A DNA stretch of 49,121 nucleotides, from the NCBI GenBank assembly GCA_947643665.1, contig CANRWW010000020.1, positions 1-49,121 of the forward strand, read 5' to 3'. Position numbers and translations under genes: made by a program. Numbering within the stretch: the stretch's first letter is position 1; the number at the start of each line of letters is the position of its first letter. The DNA comes from an uncultured Porphyromonadaceae bacterium (lineage in GTDB: Bacteria; Bacteroidota; Bacteroidia; Bacteroidales; Muribaculaceae). The notes below the pieces were generated by a model. That model was not told where the DNA came from. It saw only the letters and a list, made by a program, of their open reading frames with translations, and did not search any database. This document shows positions 29,749-40,766 of the stretch, piece after piece.

Positions 29749-32700
29749 ATGAGAAAATTATTTACATTAGCGGGGGGGGTAATTGTCATATGTAGCGCCA
29801 TCAGCGCCACTGCCGCCCCTCTGACCCAAAAGCCTCTTGCGGAGCTTTTAGGATTGAGGACCACATCCTCCTCAAACACGGCTTTCGCTTCAGGCACAGC
29901 AATTGCTCCTGCCGCCAAAGTCCCTTCGGGACGTGCAGCAGGGCTTGCAGAGGCTACAGGGGTAACCATCAACGCCAGTGTGGTATATCCGAACAACGCC
30001 CAAGGCATGTGGAGCTACAGCACCACGGAATGGAACCCTACACGCCTGTCTATCGACCCGGAAATACTTGCCACAGGAGGTGGCCTGGAGGCAAATGGTA
30101 AATATTATGTAAACCGCTACCGCGAGGTAATGGGATTTGAGGAGATTGCGACCCTTAATTATCTCACATCCACCTGGAAAATATATGACGGCCCATACAA
30201 CGGGAACATTGATTATGTAGCCACCACAATGGCATACAACCCACTGCGCGACGAGGCTTACGGGTGCTTTATCAATGCAGAGCGCAACGGATACAACTTC
30301 GTGCGGTGGAATTACGACCGTTTTCTTCCCTCCGCAACCATATGCGCACTGGAGCGTCCCTGGAGCGGATGTGCATTCTCGTCAAACGGCACCCTCTATG
30401 CCATTGAGCGCAACGGCGACCTTTACAGCGTTGACATAAAGACCGGCGCAATGACACTTATCGGGAGCACCGGCGTGGAATCCACATATATAGGCGACGC
30501 CACAATTGATCCTGCGACCGACACGATGTACTGGTGTGCGACAACCGATACAAATTACGGCCTCTACAGCGTGGACATAACCACCGCAAAAGCCACCAAG
30601 ATATATGACCTTATCAACGAGGAACAGCTCTGCGGCATGTACATTCCCGTAACTGCGGAAGAACCGGCAGAAGGGGCACCGGCAAAAATTTCATCTGTCA
30701 GCACTTCCTTCTCAGGGACATCGCTAAACGGTAAGATCAGCTTCTATTCACCACGTCTCACCATAGGGAACACCGTTCTTCCTGCGGAAGAGAACATCAC
30801 TTACACAGTAAAAGCCAACGGGAAAGAGATTGCCACAGGTGAATGCCTACCCAACAAACGCGTGGAAGTACCTGTGGAAATGATAGAGGTTGACAACTAC
30901 TATTTCACCGTGACCACTTCCAATGCCGAAGGTACGTCGCCCGTGACCGGTGCGCATAAATTCGTAGGTCCTGACTCTCCAAAGGCACCAAGTTCGTTCC
31001 AGACCACGATCTCCGGCAACACCGTGACATTGCAATGGTCATCGCCATCCTCTACCGGAATCAACGGGGGCAATGTAAACTATTCCTCCGCCACATACAC
31101 CGTGGTACGTTATCCCGACATGAAAACCATCGTGGAAAACGCGACCGACCGCAAGACCACAGACGAGCTTCCATCCCCGGAAACACGCACCGATTATTAC
31201 TACGTGCTTTCCACCACAGTGGAAGGCCTGGCCGCACCAGATGTGAAATCAACTGTCATAGCACTCGGTCCCATCACACCGCCGTTCACAGGGGAGTTCA
31301 CCGGCAGCACCTCAATTGCGGGATGGACGATCATTGACGCCAATGAGGACAACACAAAGTGGACATACAGCAATTACGACAAAGCCCTCCAGCTCTACGG
31401 GTCAAAAGGATTCAACGACTGGGCTATCACACCTGCGGTCAAAGTCAAAGCCGGCACGGCATATCCTTTCACAATTGATGTAAAGACATCCAGCTATGCC
31501 GAAGAGACATTTGAGGTAAAATGGGGTACAGCACCCACACCTGAGGCAATGACCAATACCCTTGTTGAAGCTGCGACACTTAAATCAACCACCGCGACAC
31601 GCCTTACCGGCGAGATCGCCCCTGAAGAGACCGGCACGATATACATCGGCATACATGGTATGACAGAGGGTAAATCCAATACACTCAACATACTCGGATT
31701 CTCCATTGAGTCCGGCATCATGGCCAAGGCTCCCGCGGCATGCGACAACTTCAAAGCAGAATCGCCGGTTGACGGCACACGCGAAGTAACCGTAACTTTC
31801 AACGCCCCCTCAACAGACATTTCCGGCGCGCCACTCGAAGGTGAAAGCGCCACCACCAAAATCGAAATCCTACGAGACGGCACAGTCATCGCCACACTCA
31901 CCGAGGGTATCTCCGGAGGAGACAAAGTTGAATATACCGACAGGGCAGAAAACCTCACGCTTGGCACACACCTGTACTCGGCAGTGGCATACAACAAGTA
32001 TGGCGACGGCACAATTGCAGAAATGGAAGTGCTTGTAGGTGCCCGCAAACCAGTGGCTCCCGAATCAGCCAAATTCATTGAAGAGGACAACAGCGGCAAA
32101 GTGACAATCTCATGGGACGCAGTGACCACCGATGTGAACGGCAACACCATCAAACCAGAGGCTGTGACATACCGTGTGATTGACCGTCAGATGAACACCA
32201 TTGCCGATAAACTCACCGGCACATCATTCACATATGACGCCGTACCTGAGGGTGAACAAGCCTTCTGCCAGTTCGCCGTATACGCAATCACAGCAGGCGG
32301 CGAATCCGACAAGATGGCCGCGACAGACTACAAGCCCGTGGGAACCCCTTATGCCACACCATGGTCGGAGTCATTCAAAGACCGCCAGATAAGTTCGATA
32401 TTCGGATACAACTATATCAAGGGAAATGAGCCCTGGCAGTTCACCAACCAGCACGACTGGGGCATCACATCACAGGATGAAGACAACGGTTTCGCATACT
32501 TCGAATGCTGGGGCAACGACCTGACCGCCCTCGTGACCGGTAAAATTGACCTCGAAGGGCTCAACAACCCATCATTCACATACTACACCTACAATTATTC
32601 CAGCTCCTCGGCCGTATACAGCAATGCTATCGAAATCCAGGCAGACAACGGAGACGGACGCGGATTTGTTCCCGTGCAGTCCAACGTGGTAGCCGAGACC

Positions 32701-34215
32701 GGCCCTACCAACCAGTGGAACAAGGTAGTAGTTCCACTTACCGACTTCGAAGGACAAAGCGTCATCTTCCGCATCATGCCGAAAGATCCCGCGCTGGCAA
32801 TCTACACCATTGACAACCTGCGTGTAAGCAGCTATGTGGAATACAACCTTACCGCCACACGCATCACAGCGCCGGCAGTAGCCGATGTCGACAAGCCTTT
32901 TGAAGTAGGAGTATCCGTGACCAATACGGGCGAGAATGCCGTGCGCAACTATACACTGGAGCTATGGAACGGGGATAACCTCGTTGACTTCAAGGAATGC
33001 GGTCGGATTGAGCCCAACCAGACTGTCGTAACCACATTCGAACCGACGGTAACCATAACCGACGGTGAATATGCCGGGTTCCGTGCGACAATCGTTTGCG
33101 GCGATGACCAGATCGAAAACGACAACGATACTGAAACCGCAAACGTGGGAATCATAGCGCCTATAGTGCCTGTGGCTGGAAACCTCAGCGCCGTGTGCAA
33201 CGAAGAAGGTGTAAACCTTACATGGACAGCACCCGATCTAAGCAAGGCCGCACCGGCAGCCTACACCGAGACATTTGAAAATGCCGAAAGCTGGAGCAAT
33301 ATCACAGAAGGATGGAAATTCATTGACATGGACAAGGCGCCTGTCGGTGGCATCCAGACCGCAGGCTTCCCATGCACCGGCTTGCAATCATGGTTCGTGG
33401 TTGACAGCCAGTGGGCAGGATTCGGCGAAAACGGCAATGAACGCTGGGTAGGACACTCAGGCAACAAATACATCGCCTCGGAGTATGTGGAACGTGGCGG
33501 TTCCAGCGTGCAAAGCGACGACTGGGCAATATCACCACGTCTCTACGGCGGCACACAAGCCCTCGGTTTCTATGCAAAGAGCTTCGACCCGCAATACCTT
33601 GAAACATTCGAGGTGCTTGCATCAGAAGGCACCACTTCCACCGAAGATTTCAAAACAATAGCCACTGTAACAGACGTGCCGAATGCCTGGACACAGTACC
33701 GGTTCAAGCTGCCCGAAGGCACGAAATACGCTGCCATACGCAGCCGTTCCACAAACAAATTCTTCCTCTTCATTGACGATATAACCTTCGTACCCGCAGA
33801 GGGCGCACCCGCACAACTCAGCATCAAGGGATACAACATATATCGCAACGGAGTGAAGATCAACGACGCCCTCGTCACAGAGACAGCATTCACCGACGCC
33901 AACGTTGTTGACGGACGCCAATACACCTATTTCGTAACAGCAGTATATGAAAACGGCGAATCACGCCCGTCAGACATGTTTGACATCCTCATGTCGGGCA
34001 TCAGTGGCATATCCGCCGGCAACGGCATCTCCATCAGCGCCTCCACAGGCAAAGTGACAATAACAGGCCTTGCCGAAGGATTTGTCACCGTAACCTCAGC
34101 AGACGGCCGCATCGTGGCCCGCGAGGAAGCCGCTCCTACAGTGCAAATCGACCTCACTCCAGGCGTATACATCGTAAATGCCGGAACCAGCGTAGCCAAA
34201 GTGGCAGTAAGATAA
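29749..34215 (+). CDS. large secreted adhesin-like protein (FN3-like and choice-of-anchor-J-like modules, T9SS-like tail)
   Basis: A 1488-residue precursor with a signal peptide (MRKLFTLAGGVIVICSAISATAA). Residues about 80-300 look like a beta-propeller (repeats such as GTLYAIERNGDLYSVDIKTGAMTLIG). FN3-like beta sandwiches follow, with APSSFQTTISGNTVTLQWSSPS and APESAKFIEEDNSGKVTISW. Three jelly-roll/choice-of-anchor-J-like modules start near residues 514, 868 and 1172; the phrases FNDWAITPAV and SDDWAISPRL mark two of them. A sorting domain like those of type IX substrates closes the protein (VQIDLTPGVYIVNAGTSVAKVAVR). Eight consecutive G (29772-29779) lie in the signal-peptide codons, a possible slippage site. 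The target is unknown. Confidence 0.85.
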   Translation: MRKLFTLAGGVIVICSAISATAAPLTQKPLAELLGLRTTSSSNTAFASGTAIAPAAKVPSGRAAGLAEATGVTINASVVYPNNAQGMWSYSTTEWNPTRLSIDPEILATGGGLEANGKYYVNRYREVMGFEEIATLNYLTSTWKIYDGPYNGNIDYVATTMAYNPLRDEAYGCFINAERNGYNFVRWNYDRFLPSATICALERPWSGCAFSSNGTLYAIERNGDLYSVDIKTGAMTLIGSTGVESTYIGDATIDPATDTMYWCATTDTNYGLYSVDITTAKATKIYDLINEEQLCGMYIPVTAEEPAEGAPAKISSVSTSFSGTSLNGKISFYSPRLTIGNTVLPAEENITYTVKANGKEIATGECLPNKRVEVPVEMIEVDNYYFTVTTSNAEGTSPVTGAHKFVGPDSPKAPSSFQTTISGNTVTLQWSSPSSTGINGGNVNYSSATYTVVRYPDMKTIVENATDRKTTDELPSPETRTDYYYVLSTTVEGLAAPDVKSTVIALGPITPPFTGEFTGSTSIAGWTIIDANEDNTKWTYSNYDKALQLYGSKGFNDWAITPAVKVKAGTAYPFTIDVKTSSYAEETFEVKWGTAPTPEAMTNTLVEAATLKSTTATRLTGEIAPEETGTIYIGIHGMTEGKSNTLNILGFSIESGIMAKAPAACDNFKAESPVDGTREVTVTFNAPSTDISGAPLEGESATTKIEILRDGTVIATLTEGISGGDKVEYTDRAENLTLGTHLYSAVAYNKYGDGTIAEMEVLVGARKPVAPESAKFIEEDNSGKVTISWDAVTTDVNGNTIKPEAVTYRVIDRQMNTIADKLTGTSFTYDAVPEGEQAFCQFAVYAITAGGESDKMAATDYKPVGTPYATPWSESFKDRQISSIFGYNYIKGNEPWQFTNQHDWGITSQDEDNGFAYFECWGNDLTALVTGKIDLEGLNNPSFTYYTYNYSSSSAVYSNAIEIQADNGDGRGFVPVQSNVVAETGPTNQWNKVVVPLTDFEGQSVIFRIMPKDPALAIYTIDNLRVSSYVEYNLTATRITAPAVADVDKPFEVGVSVTNTGENAVRNYTLELWNGDNLVDFKECGRIEPNQTVVTTFEPTVTITDGEYAGFRATIVCGDDQIENDNDTETANVGIIAPIVPVAGNLSAVCNEEGVNLTWTAPDLSKAAPAAYTETFENAESWSNITEGWKFIDMDKAPVGGIQTAGFPCTGLQSWFVVDSQWAGFGENGNERWVGHSGNKYIASEYVERGGSSVQSDDWAISPRLYGGTQALGFYAKSFDPQYLETFEVLASEGTTSTEDFKTIATVTDVPNAWTQYRFKLPEGTKYAAIRSRSTNKFFLFIDDITFVPAEGAPAQLSIKGYNIYRNGVKINDALVTETAFTDANVVDGRQYTYFVTAVYENGESRPSDMFDILMSGISGISAGNGISISASTGKVTITGLAEGFVTVTSADGRIVAREEAAPTVQIDLTPGVYIVNAGTSVAKVAVR
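29772..29779 (+). repeat. eight-G homopolymer in signal-peptide codons
   Basis: Eight consecutive G span the codons GCG GGG GGG GTA (Ala-Gly-Gly-Val, residues 8-11) of the surface protein. Loss or gain of one G would shift the frame close to the start and abolish the product, as in contingency loci. Confidence 0.7.
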
Positions 34216-34253
34216 CAGATTGATCCATAGAACCAGTAAGGTTCCAACTTCAT

Positions 34254-34292
34254 AACATGGCGATGTGTCATATTCCGGCACATCGCCATGTT
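34254..34292 (+). terminator. terminator after the large surface protein gene
   Basis: AACATGGCGATGTG (34254-34267) pairs with CACATCGCCATGTT (34279-34292), a 14-bp perfect stem with an 11-nt loop. It is followed by CTTTTCCT and begins 39 nt after the stop codon. Confidence 0.75.
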
Positions 34293-34396
34293 CTTTTCCT
34301 GGATGAAAAAGAGCCATACCCGTTACCGGCAACACAGCGATCCGTCCGGCATTACGTCCGGCATTATACCCCGTTTTAACCTTATAACGGCAAGGA

Positions 34397-34429
34397 TTTC
34401 GCGTATTCACAAAAAAATAGTTAACTTTG
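34397..34429 (+). promoter_or_regulatory. promoter of the inositol-lipid operon
   Basis: TAACTTTG (34422-34429) is a consensus -7 box. TTTC (34397-34400), 21 bp upstream, is an imperfect -33. The predicted leader to the ATP-grasp gene is about 40 nt. Confidence 0.55.
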
Positions 34430-34476
34430 TCGGTTGGAAACGGTGTTGGGACAAATTTTGATTTAACCTACAGACC

Positions 34477-35334
34477 ATGGCGACAACGCAGATTGCAGCC
34501 ATAATGCGCGCGGGGGCATTTTCCCCCAATCATATAGGCAATGACGCCACGATAATGAATACCGTGGCCGAGCAATTGCGCAAACGCGGATGCGAGGTCA
34601 ATATCTACAGCGAGGAGCAATTTGCCACCGGAGCAGCAAAAGAGCCGGTGATAATAAACATGTGCCGCGAAAAACGCTCCACAGACCTCCTGCAACGGCT
34701 TGAGGATGAAGGACGCCTGATCATAAATTCCGGCTACGGCATTGAGAATTGCATCCGTGAAAGACAGGCACGCATCCTGCTGGGCAGCAACATCCCATAT
34801 CCGGAGAGCATCGTGGTGGATACCGACGAAGTCGTGAAGCAACGGCTTATACGCATGGGCATGCAACAATGCTGGATAAAACGCGGCGATTACCATGCGC
34901 AGCATGCAGAAGATGTCAGCTACGTACGTTCCGCGCATGAGGCACAAGACGTGCTTCAGGAATATTTCCTGCGCGGATTCAAACGGGCTGTGATATCGCG
35001 CCACCTTCCCGGACAGCTGGTAAAATTCTACGGAGTGGAAGGCACCCCGTTTTTCCACTGGTTCCGTCCTTTCGATCCCGAAGACACGAAAATGCAGAAA
35101 GAGGAGCACCGGCGCACCGAAGAACAGCTGAAAAGCATATGCAGGAAGGCTGCCCGCGAGCTCAACATAATGGTCTACGGAGGGGAATGTATCCAGGGAG
35201 CAGACGGCTCACTTTCCATAATAGACTTCAATGACTGGCCTAGTTTCTCCGCATGCCGCACAGAAGCCGCAGCCAGCATAGCCAAGGCTGTAATATCGGC
35301 AGTAAAAGAACAAAACAACCCCGGAAAGAAATGA
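34477..35334 (+). CDS. ATP-grasp fold protein of the inositol-lipid cluster
   Basis: A 285-residue cytosolic protein without a signal. The architecture fits ATP-grasp enzymes: an N-terminal Rossmann-like region (about 1-100), a possible ATP-binding Lys in CWIKRGDYHAQ near residue 130, and a central strand set with VISRHLPGQLVKFYGVEG. The C-terminal Mg site is GSLSIIDFNDWPSFSAC near residue 255; the D-x-N pair is comparable to DxN/ExN in RimK, glutathione synthase and inositol phosphate kinases of the ITPK type. The product could be a ligase adding an amino acid or a kinase acting on inositol phosphate; the sequence does not decide. Its stop overlaps the GtrA gene start by ATGA (35331-35334). 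Confidence 0.7.
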   Translation: MATTQIAAIMRAGAFSPNHIGNDATIMNTVAEQLRKRGCEVNIYSEEQFATGAAKEPVIINMCREKRSTDLLQRLEDEGRLIINSGYGIENCIRERQARILLGSNIPYPESIVVDTDEVVKQRLIRMGMQQCWIKRGDYHAQHAEDVSYVRSAHEAQDVLQEYFLRGFKRAVISRHLPGQLVKFYGVEGTPFFHWFRPFDPEDTKMQKEEHRRTEEQLKSICRKAARELNIMVYGGECIQGADGSLSIIDFNDWPSFSACRTEAAASIAKAVISAVKEQNNPGKK

Positions 35335-35975
35335 ACGCCATACAAGAAAACAACACAGCAAAAGGTACAGCCGGGAAAAACAACAATCGTAGCCTTACGC
35401 GACGTGTCGCAGACAAATTCATGACCGGCGCCGGAATATTCACATTCCTGCGATCGTCTGTAGCCTCACAGATAGCCTCATGGATAGACATGGGTGTCTG
35501 CTTCATATTCTACGCATGGGTTTTCATGCCGCTAGGCAAAGATCCGCTTCGCTCCTTCCTGGCCACTGCCATAGGATTGGTGGTGGGAGGAGTAGTGAAC
35601 TGCTGCATCAACTACAAGTTCACCTTCAGGGCAGAGCATTGCTCGGTAAAGGCTGTTGCAGTCAAATATTTCCTGATCTGGGGAGGCAGTTTCCTGCTGA
35701 ACCTCGTGGGAACCACAGCGCTTGACCATCTGCTGCAACATGCTGGATGGCTTGAACATATCGGCTTCAAAGCCGACGGCATATTCGTATTTGCACGTCT
35801 CGCAGTCTCGCTCATCGTATCACTTGCATGGAACTTTCTGCTACAGAAAAATTTCGTATATGTATACACCCGTTTCGATCCTTTTGCGATAAAATTCATA
35901 GACTTTATCACACCACATAGAAAGAAACTGAAAAAGAGCAATACCAGACAATCAAAAGCAGACAAAACCCACTAA
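35331..35975 (+). CDS. GtrA-like four-helix membrane protein
   Basis: The frame opens at 35253, but Met at 35331 is chosen because it creates an ATGA overlap with the ATP-grasp stop, giving 214 residues. A hydrophilic N-terminus (about 40 residues) leads into the GtrA domain with four membrane helices between about residues 45 and 185 (for example FLATAIGLVVGGVVNCCINYKFTF, a GtrA hallmark). A Lys-rich cytosolic tail follows. GtrA proteins are thought to help move polyprenyl-linked sugars or lipid intermediates across the membrane. In this operon it is a candidate flippase or partner for inositol-containing lipids. The next gene starts 4 nt after its stop. Confidence 0.8.
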   Translation: MNAIQENNTAKGTAGKNNNRSLTRRVADKFMTGAGIFTFLRSSVASQIASWIDMGVCFIFYAWVFMPLGKDPLRSFLATAIGLVVGGVVNCCINYKFTFRAEHCSVKAVAVKYFLIWGGSFLLNLVGTTALDHLLQHAGWLEHIGFKADGIFVFARLAVSLIVSLAWNFLLQKNFVYVYTRFDPFAIKFIDFITPHRKKLKKSNTRQSKADKTH

Positions 35976-35979
35976 AAAA

Positions 35980-36663
35980 ATGATAAAGAACAACTATAAG
36001 AAAGAACGCGACGGCCTGCAACAAGGCATTTACGCCATAATAAACCCGTTTGTAAAACTTCTGATCCGTATTGGGATTACCCCTAATATGGTCACCACCA
36101 TCGGACTGCTAGGCAACGTCGCAGCCGCAGCAATCATAGCATACGCCGGATATGAAGCCCAACTCACCGGAAATCCGCGCTTCGACCTTATCACATGGGG
36201 AGGCGCCATAACAATCATATTCTCCCTGTTTGACATGCTTGACGGACAAGTTGCGAGGCTGGGCAACATGACAAGCCGGTTCGGCGCATTGTATGACTCG
36301 GTACTTGACCGCTACTGCGAGCTGTTCACCCTAGGGGCACTCAGCTATTATCTTATAATGAATCATTGGATAATAGGCGCATTGGTGGCTTTTCTGGCAC
36401 TGGTAGGATCCATTATGGTAAGCTATGTGCGCGCACGCGCCGAAGGTGTAGGCCTTGAATGCAAAGTCGGATTCATGCAAAGGCCGGAGCGTGTGGTAGT
36501 GACAGCCATAGGGTGTCTGGCCTGCGGCATCACAGGCGTTGTCTCTCCCAACACACCAAATACGGCTTTCACAATACTTGTCATCGCCATGGCAATAATA
36601 GCCCTCTTTGCAAACCTCACTGCATTTGCACGTATAGACGTATGCCGCAAAGGACTTAAATAA
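35980..36663 (+). CDS. CDP-alcohol phosphatidyltransferase, likely phosphatidylinositol-phosphate synthase
   Basis: A 227-residue integral membrane enzyme with the full family signature D85-x2-D88-G89-x2-A92-R93-x8-G102-x3-D106-x3-D110. It would transfer a phosphatidyl group from CDP-diacylglycerol to an alcohol. About six membrane helices surround the motif. The substrate is inferred from context: myo-inositol-1-phosphate synthase and an Aur1-like enzyme are in the same cluster, so inositol phosphate (giving PI-phosphate) or inositol is most likely. Phosphatidylglycerol-phosphate or phosphatidylserine synthesis is the main alternative. It is translated directly after GtrA. Confidence 0.88.
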   Translation: MIKNNYKKERDGLQQGIYAIINPFVKLLIRIGITPNMVTTIGLLGNVAAAAIIAYAGYEAQLTGNPRFDLITWGGAITIIFSLFDMLDGQVARLGNMTSRFGALYDSVLDRYCELFTLGALSYYLIMNHWIIGALVAFLALVGSIMVSYVRARAEGVGLECKVGFMQRPERVVVTAIGCLACGITGVVSPNTPNTAFTILVIAMAIIALFANLTAFARIDVCRKGLK

Positions 36664-36736
36664 GCCGGTCAATTTATTTACGTATTAATGTCGTTGACCA
36701 GCTTGATTATCAAATAACAACCACAAATTATTTCAA

Positions 36737-37666
36737 GTGCCTACACGCAAAGAATCACTGACATTGGTGTGCGTCCTTGCCATATGGCTGTCTGTAACAG
36801 CCCTGTGCGTGGGATTCCGTCCTGAGCATTTATGGATCTCGCTATTCCTGGCCATACTGTTTTTCAGCACACCGACAACCAGGCGGCTCGTAGTGGCTCT
36901 TTTGCCATTTATAATTTTCGGGATATCTTATGACTGGATGAACATCGTGCACAACTATGATGTCAATCCCGTAGATATAGAGGGAATATACCAAGCCGAG
37001 AAATCACTGTTCGGGATAACGGCCTCCGACGGCAGCATCCTCACCCCCAATGAATTTTTCCGCCTCAACAGGATCCCCTGGATGGACATAGCAGGAGGAT
37101 TCTTCTATCTCTGCTGGGTGCCGGTGCCTATCCTGTTCGGGCTTTACCTTTATTTCGGCGGCAATGTAAAGCCATACCTGCATTTCGCCATAGTGTTTCT
37201 TTTCGTAAACCTCATAGGATTTGCCGGATATTACATCCACCCGGCCGCCCCACCATGGTATGTCGCAAAATACGGATTTGATTTCATACTGGGCACACCT
37301 GGCGACGTTGCCGGTCTTGGCGCTTTTGATGAAGCAACCGGCCTTGGCATTTTCAACGGCCTGTATGGCCGCAACTCCAATGTATTTGCAGCAGTGCCCT
37401 CACTGCATTCCGCATATACACTGGTCGCTTTCATATACTCCATCCGTTCGCGGTCGCCATGGTGGATGACAACCTTGTTGGGAATCATCACGCTTGGCAT
37501 ATGGTTCACCGCCGTATATACATCGCACCATTATATAATAGACGTAACACTCGGAATAGCTTGCGCCCTTATCGGATATCTTGTTTTTGAGTATATCATA
37601 ATGCGCATTCCTGTTTTTTCCAAATTTATGTGCCGTTATGAAAAATATGTCAGCAATAATAGCTGA
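36737..37666 (+). CDS. Aur1-like PAP2-family membrane enzyme, likely inositol phosphoceramide synthase
   Basis: A 309-residue protein with a GTG start (no ATG occurs before helix 3) and about six membrane helices. It carries the lumen-side HPAAPPWY motif (168-175) and the PAP2 triad-like residues: His224 in VPSLHSAY, and His265 and Asp269 in SHHYIIDV. This H...H-x3-D arrangement is that of fungal Aur1 inositol phosphoceramide synthases rather than soluble phosphatases. The likely reaction moves phosphoinositol from phosphatidylinositol to a ceramide-type acceptor. It could also act as a lipid phosphatase. It follows the CDP-alcohol transferase by 73 bp and precedes MIPS. Confidence 0.8.
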   Translation: MPTRKESLTLVCVLAIWLSVTALCVGFRPEHLWISLFLAILFFSTPTTRRLVVALLPFIIFGISYDWMNIVHNYDVNPVDIEGIYQAEKSLFGITASDGSILTPNEFFRLNRIPWMDIAGGFFYLCWVPVPILFGLYLYFGGNVKPYLHFAIVFLFVNLIGFAGYYIHPAAPPWYVAKYGFDFILGTPGDVAGLGAFDEATGLGIFNGLYGRNSNVFAAVPSLHSAYTLVAFIYSIRSRSPWWMTTLLGIITLGIWFTAVYTSHHYIIDVTLGIACALIGYLVFEYIIMRIPVFSKFMCRYEKYVSNNS

Positions 37667-37744
37667 CATTAACAAAACGCGGGCAAGCTCAATTTTCTTT
37701 TATTAACAAACAAGCTTGTCAAAGACCGCTTATTTAACATTTGT

Positions 37745-37777
37745 TTTGTAAATAGCCGCTTTTTTAGCTCATATTTG
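37745..37777 (+). promoter_or_regulatory. candidate promoter of the MIPS gene
   Basis: TTTG (37745-37748) and CATATTTG (37770-37777, one mismatch to TAnnTTTG) are 21 bp apart. Confidence 0.45.
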
Positions 37778-37809
37778 CAAAAAAGCACAAATTTTACCAC
37801 TGAAAAAAT

Positions 37810-37823
37810 TTTGCAATTGCAAA
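37810..37823. promoter_or_regulatory. 14-bp perfect palindrome upstream of MIPS
   Basis: TTTGCAATTGCAAA is its own reverse complement. It lies shortly downstream of the candidate promoter, a typical position for a repressor site. No second copy was noticed in this window. Confidence 0.4.
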
Positions 37824-38004
37824 CTTATATGTACTTTTACATGATTTTTTCAGAGAAAGCCCTGAAAACATCTTTTCACAAACCATAACCGCCGGACAGT
37901 TGCATGGCATTTTCCGGCGTTATCTCATGCAAGGCAAATGGAAAATCCGCAATGCAGGGATCAAAAAGCCAGAAACACAAAATATTAAAACATATAACAA
38001 CAAA

Positions 38005-39339
38005 ATGAGTAACGTAAAGAAAGCCGAAGGCAAACTCGGCGTAATGGTTGTTGGTCTGGGTGCTGTCACCACCACCTTCATGACCGGCGTTTTAATGACC
38101 CGCAAAGGACTTGCAAAGCCCGTTGGTTCCATGACCCAATACGACAAAATCCGTGTTGGTGAAGGTGCCGACAAAAAATACCTCAAATACAACGAAATCG
38201 TACCCATCGCCGACCTCAACGACATCGTGTTCGGAGCATGGGACGTATATCCTGCAAACGCATACGAATCTACTATCCACGCAGAAGTTCTCAAAGAGAA
38301 AGACGTAAACCCTGTGAAGGATGAACTTGAAGCCATCAAGCCCCTGAAAGCCGCTTTCGACCACAACTATGCGAAACGTCTTGACGGCGACAACATCATG
38401 GTCGGCAAAACACGCTGGGAGATGGTAGAACAACTGCGTGAGGATATCCGCAACTTCAAGAAAGAAAACGGAGTAGACCGCGTGGTAGTTCTGTGGGCAG
38501 CTTCAACAGAAGTTTATGTTCCCGTAAATGAAGAGGTACACTACAAACTTGCAGACCTTGAAGCTGCTATGAAAGCAGACGACAAGGAAAACATCGCACC
38601 TTCCATGTGCTACGCTTATGCCGCACTTACAGAAGGATGCCCCTTCATCATGGGCGCACCCAACACAACGGTAGACATACCTGCCATGTGGGAGCTCGCC
38701 GAAAAGACCAAAATGCCCATTGCAGGCAAGGACTTCAAGACAGGCCAGACCCTCGTCAAATCAGGATTCGCTCCTATCATCGGCACACGCTGCCTCGGTC
38801 TGAACGGATGGTTCTCAACAAACATCCTCGGCAACCGCGACGGTCTCGTACTTGACGAACCCGCAAACTTCCGCACAAAAGAAGTATCAAAACTCTCTAC
38901 ACTTGAGTCTATTCTTGTTCCCGAAGACCAGCCCGACCTCTACGGAGTAAACTGCGGCGGCGAAGGCAACGAGCACAACGGCTATTACCACAAAGTACGC
39001 ATCAACTACTATCCCCCGCGCAACGACAACAAAGAGGGATGGGACAACATTGATATATTCGGATGGATGGGTTACCCCATGCAGATCAAGATCAACTTCC
39101 TCTGCCGCGACTCAATCCTCGCAGCACCCCTCTGCCTTGACCTCGTGCTCCTCAGCGACCTCGCCGCACGTTGCGGACGTTATGGCATACAGCGCTTCCT
39201 GAGCTTCTTCCTCAAGAGCCCCATGCACGACTATACAAAAGACGAGGTGCCCGTAAACCACCTCTTCCAGCAATACGTAATGCTGAAAAACGCCATCCGC
39301 GAGATGGGCGGCTATCATGCAGACGAGCCGATTGACTGA
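38005..39339 (+). CDS. myo-inositol-1-phosphate synthase
   Basis: This cytosolic NAD-dependent enzyme converts glucose-6-phosphate to myo-inositol-1-phosphate. The frame opens at 37900, but Met at 38005 (MSNVKKAEGKLGVMVVG) gives a normal start and 444 residues. Evidence is the NAD loop VVGLGAVTTTFMTG at residues 15-28 and LWAASTEVYVPV near residue 168. The core GKDFKTGQTLVKSGFAPII with catalytic-region lysines lies near residue 241, and LNGWFSTNILGNRDG and CLDLVLLSDLAAR follow. The bacterial/archaeal-type MIPS length fits. It supplies inositol phosphate for the lipid genes just upstream and ends before a strong terminator. Confidence 0.93.
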   Translation: MSNVKKAEGKLGVMVVGLGAVTTTFMTGVLMTRKGLAKPVGSMTQYDKIRVGEGADKKYLKYNEIVPIADLNDIVFGAWDVYPANAYESTIHAEVLKEKDVNPVKDELEAIKPLKAAFDHNYAKRLDGDNIMVGKTRWEMVEQLREDIRNFKKENGVDRVVVLWAASTEVYVPVNEEVHYKLADLEAAMKADDKENIAPSMCYAYAALTEGCPFIMGAPNTTVDIPAMWELAEKTKMPIAGKDFKTGQTLVKSGFAPIIGTRCLGLNGWFSTNILGNRDGLVLDEPANFRTKEVSKLSTLESILVPEDQPDLYGVNCGGEGNEHNGYYHKVRINYYPPRNDNKEGWDNIDIFGWMGYPMQIKINFLCRDSILAAPLCLDLVLLSDLAARCGRYGIQRFLSFFLKSPMHDYTKDEVPVNHLFQQYVMLKNAIREMGGYHADEPID

Positions 39340-39455
39340 TGCCCCGTGTAGCGCAAGATCGCGCACGGCAAACAGCATTATAAAGGCTTAGCCCATTCGC
39401 CAAAGGCGATCCGATACCGAACATTTTGAATTGTTGTACATAGCATTTTGTTTGG

Positions 39456-39487
39456 AAAGCCGGAAGATTGTGAAATCTTCCGGCTTT
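39456..39487. terminator. terminator of MIPS, shared with the AraC-type gene
   Basis: AAAGCCGGAAGATT (39456-39469) and AATCTTCCGGCTTT (39474-39487) form a perfect 14-bp stem with a GTGA loop, between two converging genes. The A- and T-ended arms let it work in both directions. Confidence 0.75.
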
Positions 39488-39620: not shown

Positions 39621-40766
39621 TCAGAAACGCGGACCGTTTTCCTGCTGGTAAGTCCTTGGAGTGAGACCGGTAAATTCGGTAAATTTAGTATGGAAATTAC
39701 TTCTGTCATTGAAACCTACAAGCTCATAAAGGCAACTTACTTGCAAACCAGGAGTAGAACGGATAAGACGTTCGGCTTCCTCAAGCCTCAACCGCATGCG
39801 CCAACTTCGAAAAGTCGTGTTATGAACCTGCTGGAAATAAGTAATAAACTCGTTACGCGACACTCCCATTCGTTCAGCCAGCTGTTCAGTGGTAACATCG
39901 CTCTCTATGAAACCCCTCTGTTCTACCCACCTTTGCAACGCATCTTCCAGTTTATCGTAATGGGAAGCGATAGAAACACCGGAACAATCTGATCCGCACG
40001 AGACAACAGGGCCACACCCTTGAATGCCACCATCTGGCATCATCGCCTTAACCGGTTCGCCGACAATCTTTATGATGTAATCCCCTTTTATACGGTAACC
40101 TATCATTGTCACACATACCCAGGTATAATACACCGTATACAGCACGACAAGAGCCGTATATAACCATGACGACATAGGCAATACGAATATTACCAGCATT
40201 ACGGCTCCTATAATCAAAGCACTGCAGAATATATGCAATACAGGACGCAGACGCAGCGAGGCTTCTTCATCGTCATAATTGACGTACAACGCACTTTCCG
40301 TCTGTTTATAGAAACGCCTGAAACGCCCGGCATAATACCTTACCTGAAATATAAAGAAGCATATATAAAGCCCGTAACTGTAATAATACAACGTAGGGAA
40401 ATAACACTGCACGACTATCAACTGGGCGGCAAGCAACATGATAAGTACGATCTGTATCACTATCCGACGCATAGTCACCTCAAGAGGCGCCACGAGGGTT
40501 GTTGCCGTAGCTGCCAACAGAAGAGCCTGAAAACTTGTATCCCATATCACAACGGTTTTCTGCCATATGGCATCAGTGCATTCCGCCATGAGATAACTTA
40601 CCAGCGCAAGGGCACTAAAAGTAGCAACCATAAACCAACGCGAAATAGACCACCGCAACCATCTCCGTGAACGAGGCGTCGGCAAACCTGCCAGGACAAC
40701 CGCCAGTGTGACCAGAATCGCAGTGGACACGTATGAGATCAAGATTTGATGGTGGCAGACGATCAT
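39621..40766 (-). CDS. membrane-embedded AraC-family transcriptional regulator
   Basis: A 381-residue protein whose first 225 residues form six to seven membrane helices (for example ISYVSTAILVTLAVVLAGL, IVIQIVLIMLLAAQLIVVQC, LYTALVVLYTVYYTWVCVTMI). A Cys/Gly-rich linker (GCGPVVSCGSDCSG) and a C-terminal AraC/XylS DNA-binding domain (about 280-378) follow. The domain has both helix-turn-helix units: TTEQLAERMGVSRNEFITYF, and VSCLYELVGFNDRSNFHTKF followed by GLTPRTYQQ. DNA binding would occur at the membrane surface with the helices acting as sensor. The gene is convergent with MIPS and divergent from the DUF2851 gene. Its target is not evident; the inositol-lipid genes are the nearest candidates. 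Confidence 0.85.
   Translation of the reverse strand: MIVCHHQILISYVSTAILVTLAVVLAGLPTPRSRRWLRWSISRWFMVATFSALALVSYLMAECTDAIWQKTVVIWDTSFQALLLAATATTLVAPLEVTMRRIVIQIVLIMLLAAQLIVVQCYFPTLYYYSYGLYICFFIFQVRYYAGRFRRFYKQTESALYVNYDDEEASLRLRPVLHIFCSALIIGAVMLVIFVLPMSSWLYTALVVLYTVYYTWVCVTMIGYRIKGDYIIKIVGEPVKAMMPDGGIQGCGPVVSCGSDCSGVSIASHYDKLEDALQRWVEQRGFIESDVTTEQLAERMGVSRNEFITYFQQVHNTTFRSWRMRLRLEEAERLIRSTPGLQVSCLYELVGFNDRSNFHTKFTEFTGLTPRTYQQENGPRF

What the first reader, a model, noticed from the sequence alone, without database searches (positions are those of the whole stretch)
34397..39487. Five-gene inositol-lipid cluster with two unexplained members
Seen: MIPS, a CDP-alcohol phosphatidyltransferase with a complete motif and an Aur1-like PAP2 enzyme lie on one strand behind one promoter, together with an ATP-grasp and a GtrA protein. 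Known: gut Bacteroidetes make phosphatidylinositol and inositol phosphoceramide from a comparable locus. Inferred: this organism makes inositol lipids and may decorate or flip them using the two extra proteins. No separate phosphatidylinositol-phosphate phosphatase is visible here, so either the PAP2 enzyme does both steps or a phosphatase is encoded elsewhere.
Basis: partly seen in the sequence, partly recalled or inferred. Interest (0 to 1): 0.75.

Follow-up and report, generated by a model that had tools for sequence, protein, structure and literature searches.

The report
Inositol-lipid operon with unexplained ATP-grasp enzyme
A gut bacterium carries the known gene set for making inositol lipids, with one of the enzymes encoded elsewhere in the genome, plus an unstudied ATP-using enzyme that sits beside inositol-lipid genes in many related bacteria and may be a kinase that feeds inositol into them.

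Summary
Five same-strand genes (34477-39339) encode an ATP-grasp protein, GtrA, a PI-phosphate synthase (complete motif), an Aur1-type PAP2 protein and MIPS. This is the published B. thetaiotaomicron-type inositol-lipid locus (BT_1522-1526). GtrA is BT_1524's counterpart, not a new member. The missing PIP phosphatase is encoded elsewhere: the genome's one PgpA lies on another contig, and PgpA and PIP synthase co-occur (20 of 61 genomes each, 19 shared; both mismatches are incomplete genomes). PAP2 need not do both steps.

The parts
34422..34429 (+). TAACTTTG, a Bacteroidota -7-like box upstream of the operon
   Evidence: Only exact TAnnTTTG in 34216-34480; the consensus is recalled; no -33 TTTG seen by eye
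34477..35334 (+). ATP-grasp protein (285 aa) of an uncharacterised family linked to inositol-lipid loci; proposed inositol kinase
35331..35975 (+). GtrA-family membrane protein, counterpart of BT_1524 (35.7% identical over 157 aligned columns to the GtrA of the BT-type locus L214)
   Evidence: start inferred from the ATGA overlap
35980..36663 (+). PI-phosphate synthase (BT_1523 type)
36737..37666 (+). PI-dihydroceramide (IPC) synthase, Aur1-like PAP2 (BT_1522 type), GTG start
38005..39339 (+). myo-inositol-3-phosphate synthase (BT_1526 type)

Best explanation
The locus is a B. thetaiotaomicron-type inositol-lipid operon. MIPS turns glucose-6-phosphate into Ins3P. The CDP-alcohol enzyme joins Ins3P to CDP-diacylglycerol, giving PIP. 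A PgpA-type phosphatase encoded elsewhere (contig C63) removes the ring phosphate, giving PI. GtrA probably helps move PI across the membrane, and the Aur1-like PAP2 enzyme transfers phosphoinositol to dihydroceramide. (Shown here: gene content and family membership. Inferred: activities, from B. thetaiotaomicron.) The ATP-grasp protein is most likely an ITPK-like kinase acting on the soluble inositol pool. The version I favour is that it phosphorylates free inositol, so that external inositol can enter either published route to PI: the PIP synthase, or the cytidylyltransferase plus CDP-alcohol enzyme. (Inferred.) My probabilities: BT-type locus with the phosphatase elsewhere, about 0.9; ATP-grasp protein is a kinase of a soluble inositol compound, about 0.45, of which free inositol about 0.25 and Ins3P about 0.2 (the first rival). 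The confidence below is for the kinase part.
For: Locus families; SPT. Phosphatase elsewhere: PgpA in 20 of 61 genomes (own plus 60 relatives), PIP synthase in 20 of 61, 19 shared; exceptions G009 (80% complete) and G011 (71% complete; PIP synthase cut by the contig end in L008) (Fisher p 1.3e-13, not corrected for kinship). None of the 61 has two PgpA at E 0.001. Kinase reading: (i) profile A5 (18 diverse members) against solved structures: best hit Arabidopsis ITPK4 E 2.9e-6; 6 of 11 listed rows are ITPKs, four of them human ITPK1 entries at 0.005; K-F-Y and D-x-N-x-x-P-S-F shared with ITPK4. Profile A1: best hit Entamoeba ITPK 2.4e-5; 5 of 8 rows ITPK, four of them at 0.55-0.6, i.e. not significant. 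(ii) K183 is present in all rows of A1 (15), A2 (64) and A5 (18); D250 in 13, 62 and 18 of them; no row has the E of the aligned ligases PsnB and ArgX. (iii) 39 of 40 carriers have a PI-synthesis gene. (iv) The cytidylyltransferase lies in the same fetched region in 38 of 39 order-level regions and 61 of 80 named loci; fused in four genomes, and in a fifth to cytidylyltransferase plus CDP-alcohol enzyme. (v) 15 of 40 carriers lack that route; dN/dS 0.018 and 0.022. (vi) MIPS not found in two 99%-complete carriers, G296 and G353. (vii) B. thetaiotaomicron, whose published locus has no such gene, uses hardly any external inositol for lipids.
Confidence: 0.45

Rival explanations
1. The ATP-grasp protein phosphorylates the MIPS product Ins3P to an inositol bisphosphate. 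In the 'alternative' route the cytidylyltransferase activates this, the CDP-alcohol enzyme makes PIP and the HAD enzyme removes the phosphate.
For: Ins3P is an ITPK1 substrate (review statement); fusions of ATP-grasp with cytidylyltransferase and CDP-alcohol enzyme; it gives HAD a phosphatase role like PgpA, and Heaver report a CDP-alcohol/HAD fusion in P. veroralis.
Against: It gives no use for the protein in genomes with only the PIP-synthase route, where it is kept, and cannot start in genomes where MIPS was not found.
Confidence: 0.2
2. The ATP-grasp protein is a ligase that attaches an amino acid or other carboxylate to the inositol headgroup or its precursor (decoration), as RimK, LysX or PsnB act on their acceptors.
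For: Nearest folds are RimK and LysX/ArgX; NCBIfam RimK-family hits in 16 of 18 members; PsnB close in sequence; in 8 of 12 distant regions the locus also has aminotransferase-like and inositol-dehydrogenase-like genes that could supply an amino group.
Against: K183 and, in nearly all rows, D250 match the aligned ITPKs rather than PsnB; no aminotransferase lies in the window's five-gene locus; fusion to the cytidylyltransferase favours the soluble phosphate stage.
Confidence: 0.22
3. The ATP-grasp protein is a lipid kinase that phosphorylates PI or IPC (a bacterial phosphoinositide kinase).
For: It occurs with both routes, whose common products would be PI and PI-dihydroceramide.
Against: Fused to a soluble cytidylyltransferase in five genomes; it would oppose the PIP phosphatase encoded in the same genome.
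Confidence: 0.1
4. No PIP phosphatase exists and the PAP2 enzyme performs both steps.
For: No phosphatase gene other than PAP2 lies between 34477 and 39339.
Against: An unlinked PgpA, 49.7% identical over 151 aa to the one inside the BT-type locus L214, is present, and PgpA co-occurs with the PIP synthase.
Confidence: 0.04

Closest known systems
B. thetaiotaomicron inositol-lipid locus BT_1522-BT_1526 (Heaver 2022, PMC9246714; Sartorio 2022, PMC8791184)
   Same: IPC/PI-DHC synthase, PIP synthase, GtrA and MIPS together; PgpA-type phosphatase in the same genome
   Different: PgpA is on another contig here; an ATP-grasp gene heads the operon
Alternative inositol-lipid cluster of B. vulgatus/Prevotella (NTP transferase, CDP-alcohol phosphatidyltransferase, HAD; Heaver 2022)
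   Same: The ATP-grasp homologue lies between NTP transferase and CDP-alcohol enzyme in such clusters of P. distasonis, B. finegoldii and P. nigrescens and in many of the loci
   Different: The window genome lacks that NTP transferase and CDP-alcohol enzyme at E 1e-15
ITPK, inositol tris/tetrakisphosphate kinases (ATP-grasp)
   Same: Best sequence-profile hits, D-x-N and (ITPK4) K-F-Y motifs, ATP-grasp fold
   Different: 12-16% identity in the structural alignments; bacterial, tied to lipid loci; activity unknown
RimK / LysX / PsnB ATP-grasp ligases
   Same: Closest fold by Z (RimK, LysX), weak NCBIfam hits
   Different: No E in the D/E-x-N motif in any aligned row; context of inositol lipids

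Membership tests
BT-type inositol-lipid locus | MIPS present and clustered | tested here: met
BT-type inositol-lipid locus | PIP synthase with D-x2-DG-x2-AR...G-x3-D-x3-D | tested here: met
   Motif; NF052561 277 bits, under the curated cut-off of 350; only 1 of 61 genomes (G055) passes that cut-off
BT-type inositol-lipid locus | PI-DHC/IPC synthase (BT_1522 type) | tested here: met
   NF052609 492.8 bits, cut-off 480; AUR1 4.8e-18
BT-type inositol-lipid locus | PgpA-type PIP phosphatase inside the cluster (BT_1525) | tested here: not met
   Own genome: one PgpA over the cut-off, on contig C63, not in the window contig C20
BT-type inositol-lipid locus | production of PI and PI-dihydroceramide | not testable with these tools
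   needs lipidomics
Alternative (CDP-inositol) cluster | NTP transferase and its CDP-alcohol enzyme | tested here: not met
   Not found in the own genome at E 1e-15
ITPK family | ATP-grasp fold with D-x-N metal motif | tested here: met
   Fold. Motif in the window protein; D in 62 of 64 rows of A2
ITPK family | significant match to the Pfam ITPK domain Ins134_P3_kin | tested here: inconclusive
   2 of 18 members, best E 0.0048; no such hit for the window protein
ITPK family | inositol-phosphate kinase activity | not testable with these tools
   needs enzyme assay
RimK-type ligases | curated NCBIfam score | tested here: not met
   rimK_fam 23.8 bits, cut-off 143.4; MptN 36.6, cut-off 350

The most novel reading that the evidence does not exclude
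A widespread, unstudied bacterial family of ITPK-like ATP-grasp inositol kinases supplies inositol phosphate for membrane lipids in Bacteroidota. It is the missing kinase step of a Kennedy-type route to PI and doubles as a salvage entry for the PIP route. The two routes, published as alternatives, are combined in single loci in a number of Muribaculaceae.
Probability: 0.4. Interest if true: 0.75.

Novelty: new variant of a known kind. Interest (0 to 1): 0.55.

Why it matters
Inositol lipids of gut Bacteroidota affect capsule expression, peptide resistance and fitness in mice in the published work (abstract). The enzyme functions of the second, Prevotella-type route are unconfirmed. A conserved kinase candidate, fused to the cytidylyltransferase in some genomes, gives a direct biochemical handle on that route. 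If it is an inositol kinase it would also explain how some gut bacteria could use dietary inositol for lipids. Loci that hold both routes show that they are not simply exclusive alternatives.

Tried and rejected
PAP2 doing both steps: rejected in favour of the unlinked PgpA. MIPS-less genomes: one search found no NAD_binding_5 match in G022, G205, G231, G278, G296, G300, G353. G205 was dropped because its locus holds a divergent MIPS. G015 and G031 show only MIPS fragments and no PF01658 match; I count them as having MIPS in broken assemblies. G022 (85% complete) and G231, G278, G300 (86-93%) are weak cases and are not used. Structure as arbiter between kinase and ligase: no clear decision, slightly nearer RimK. 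Pfam scans of the family: no consistent family. Full invariance of D250, which I first assumed from A5, did not hold in A1 and A2. Literature: the listings of searches showed no paper on this ATP-grasp family; the main texts of Heaver 2022 and Sartorio 2022 have no occurrence of 'ATP-grasp'; their figures and supplements could not be searched. Structure of the PAP2 protein: queue full; replaced by the sequence profile against AUR1.

Papers: PMC9246714, sections 4, 6, 8, 10, 37, 41 and passages; PMC8791184, PMC10191378, PMC12482443, PMC8024741, passages only; others only as search listings.
Full report
What is there. Gene order on the + strand is ATP-grasp (34477-35334), GtrA (35331-35975), PIP synthase (35980-36663), IPC synthase (36737-37666), MIPS (38005-39339). 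The first two overlap as ATGA, the next gaps are 4 and 73 nt, and 338 nt precede MIPS. Pfam or NCBIfam name four of the five. The CDP-alcohol enzyme scores 277.4 bits with the BT_1523 PIP-synthase model (cut-off 350) against 28.6 for PgsA and 20.5 for PssA, and carries the full motif. The PAP2 protein passes the cut-off for phosphoinositol dihydroceramide synthase (492.8 over 480) and its family profile matches solved AUR1 at 4.8e-18. MIPS matches 7nwr, an inositol-3-phosphate synthase. A serine palmitoyltransferase is encoded on contig C30.

Known background. Heaver 2022 (sections read) assigned BT_1522 (PI-DHC synthase), BT_1523 (PIP synthase), BT_1524 (GtrA, no lipid change by TLC), BT_1525 (PgpA-like PIP phosphatase) and BT_1526 (MIPS), and described a second cluster (NTP transferase, CDP-alcohol enzyme, HAD) whose enzyme functions are not confirmed. 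Sartorio 2022 (passages) found less IPC and more PI in a BT1524 mutant and could not delete BT1525, which Heaver did delete. The GtrA protein of the window is therefore a known member; a role in bringing PI to the IPC synthase is an inference from Sartorio, not a result here.

The missing phosphatase. The own genome has one PgpA over the cut-off, on contig C63 (a second match at E 0.285 is below it). The ORF next to it (L002:749-1837) looks by eye like an endonuclease/exonuclease/phosphatase-family protein; no call named it. Among 61 genomes (own plus 60 relatives) PgpA occurs in 20 and the PIP synthase in 20, with 19 shared. The two mismatches are an 80%-complete genome (G009) and a 71%-complete genome (G011) whose PIP-synthase gene is cut by the contig end (L008). 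The 22 genomes with the alternative CDP-alcohol enzyme but no PIP synthase have no PgpA. In the ten genomes of the window's genus that hold ATP-grasp, PIP synthase and PgpA, PgpA lies on another contig or, in G004, about 135 kb away; these are draft assemblies, but the window shows 34 kb before and nearly 10 kb after the cluster. The window's PgpA is 49.7% identical (151 aa) to the one inside the BT-type locus of G055. I conclude that it is most likely the PIP phosphatase.

Distribution of the ATP-grasp protein. It is in 40 of 61 genomes, 53 of 393 of the order and 15 of 392 of the phylum sample, four of these in the order. Of the 40, 39 have the PIP synthase or the alternative CDP-alcohol enzyme; the fortieth is G011. 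Three genomes have one of those enzymes without it: G003, G048 (a weak CDP-alcohol match) and G055. I fetched regions for 39 of the 53 order-level carriers: the NTP transferase lies in the region in 38 and the CDP-alcohol enzyme in 36. It is not always the next gene (L181 and L211 have it several kb away), and the one region without it (L213) ends at the contig end. In the 80 named loci the counts are 61 and 73. In 12 regions from all 11 carriers outside the order both are present in 12 of 12. Five order-level genomes have it fused: four to the NTP transferase (G059, G142, G231, G358; the last three in one genus) and one (G205) as NTP transferase-ATP-grasp-CDP-alcohol enzyme, 820 aa.

Two routes in one locus. 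Four of the 61 genomes have both enzymes. A full merged example is L042: NTP transferase, ATP-grasp, PgpA, GtrA, PIP synthase, PAP2, CDP-alcohol enzyme, HAD, MIPS. The window's type looks like a reduced form of such a merged locus (inference): the NTP transferase and CDP-alcohol enzyme are not found genome-wide, PgpA is elsewhere, and the ATP-grasp gene is kept under strong purifying selection (dN/dS 0.018 against L005 and 0.022 against L006; L037 gives the same figure because its gene is identical to L006; dS is high, so approximate).

What the ATP-grasp protein is. AlphaFold gives a confident full ATP-grasp fold (pLDDT 87.0, pTM 0.85). Foldseek ranks D-Ala-type ligases, PsnB, DcsG and RimK in its top 50. 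VIA-align gives RimK 20.7, LysX 19.7, synapsin 19.3, ITPK1 18.6 and PPIP5K2 18.5, each over about 240-253 residues at 3-4 A: superfamily-level similarity, slightly nearer RimK. Sequence profiles lean the other way: best hits Entamoeba ITPK (2.4e-5) and Arabidopsis ITPK4 (2.9e-6), with PsnB close (4.7e-6) and RimK lower (0.049). The metal motif is D-x-N as in the aligned ITPKs in 62 of 64 rows of A2; the exceptions seen in A1 and A2 carry Ser (L017, L033, L045) or His (L113), none carries E as in PsnB and ArgX. NCBIfam points to RimK at scores far under its cut-offs. I read this as kinase more likely than ligase, not proven.

Mechanism. A protein that occurs with both routes, is fused to the enzyme that would use inositol phosphate, survives without the CDP-inositol route, and is found in two 99%-complete genomes where MIPS was not detected (G296, G353) fits best with a kinase that makes inositol phosphate from free inositol. 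B. thetaiotaomicron, whose published locus lacks it, uses almost no external inositol. Against this, known ITPKs are said not to take free inositol but do take Ins3P (a review's statement), and 70 of 77 carriers searched have MIPS. Hence the split probabilities.

Novelty. The operon is a new variant of a known locus. The ATP-grasp family and the merged loci did not appear in the listings of searches of the open-licence library; subscription papers, figures and supplements were not searchable. After the required check I mended counts and wording (adjacency, D250, fold, naming of the neighbour ORF); confidence in the kinase part went from 0.47 to 0.45 because of the D250 exceptions.

Noticed in passing
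L227-L233, L235, L237, L238 (families f131 and f149, outside the order): In these ten distant regions the alternative cluster also holds MlaE/MlaF/MlaD-like lipid-transport genes in 8 (not L228, L235) and, in 8 (not L228, L231), a class-III aminotransferase and a Gfo/Idh/MocA enzyme nearest to inositol 2-dehydrogenase; four (L227, L229, L237, L238) have two tandem ATP-grasp genes. This suggests an aminoinositol lipid with its own transport system. Profiles were run on the L232 set and the L229 aminotransferase only; the others are by position and resemblance of sequence starts.
   Followed up: partly
L176:11107-12285 (G205): A divergent MIPS (matches PF01658, not the other MIPS domain at the thresholds used) follows the fused NTP transferase-ATP-grasp-CDP-alcohol gene, LPG-synthase-TM and HAD; no MIPS of the usual Bacteroidales type was found in this genome.
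   Followed up: partly
L188, L189, L191, L192: A second CDP-alcohol-enzyme-like gene lies a few kb from the inositol cluster; in L189, L191 and L192 with its own NTP-transferase match, in L188 with a nucleotidyltransferase-like ORF (by eye), and without a second ATP-grasp gene; perhaps another headgroup.
   Followed up: no
L113:2565-5892: ATP-grasp gene and MIPS separated only by an acyltransferase-like ORF (named by eye), with neither PI-synthesis enzyme in the locus; this ATP-grasp copy has His at the D250 position.
   Followed up: no
L017, L033, L045: ATP-grasp copies with Ser in place of the metal-motif Asp; all three lie in loci with PIP synthase and PgpA.
   Followed up: partly
L040:15265: A homologue of the ORF that neighbours PgpA in the window's genome lies about 2 kb after PAP2 in this relative's inositol locus, without PgpA beside it.
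   Followed up: no
L193: LPG-synthase-TM and HAD matches in one 572-aa ORF.
   Followed up: no
window 39621-40766 (-): AraC-type regulator (HTH_18 at the C-terminus) downstream of MIPS on the other strand; link to the operon unknown.
   Followed up: no
window 29749-34215 (+): Large 1488-aa protein with choice-of-anchor-J domain matches ending 261 nt before the operon.
   Followed up: no
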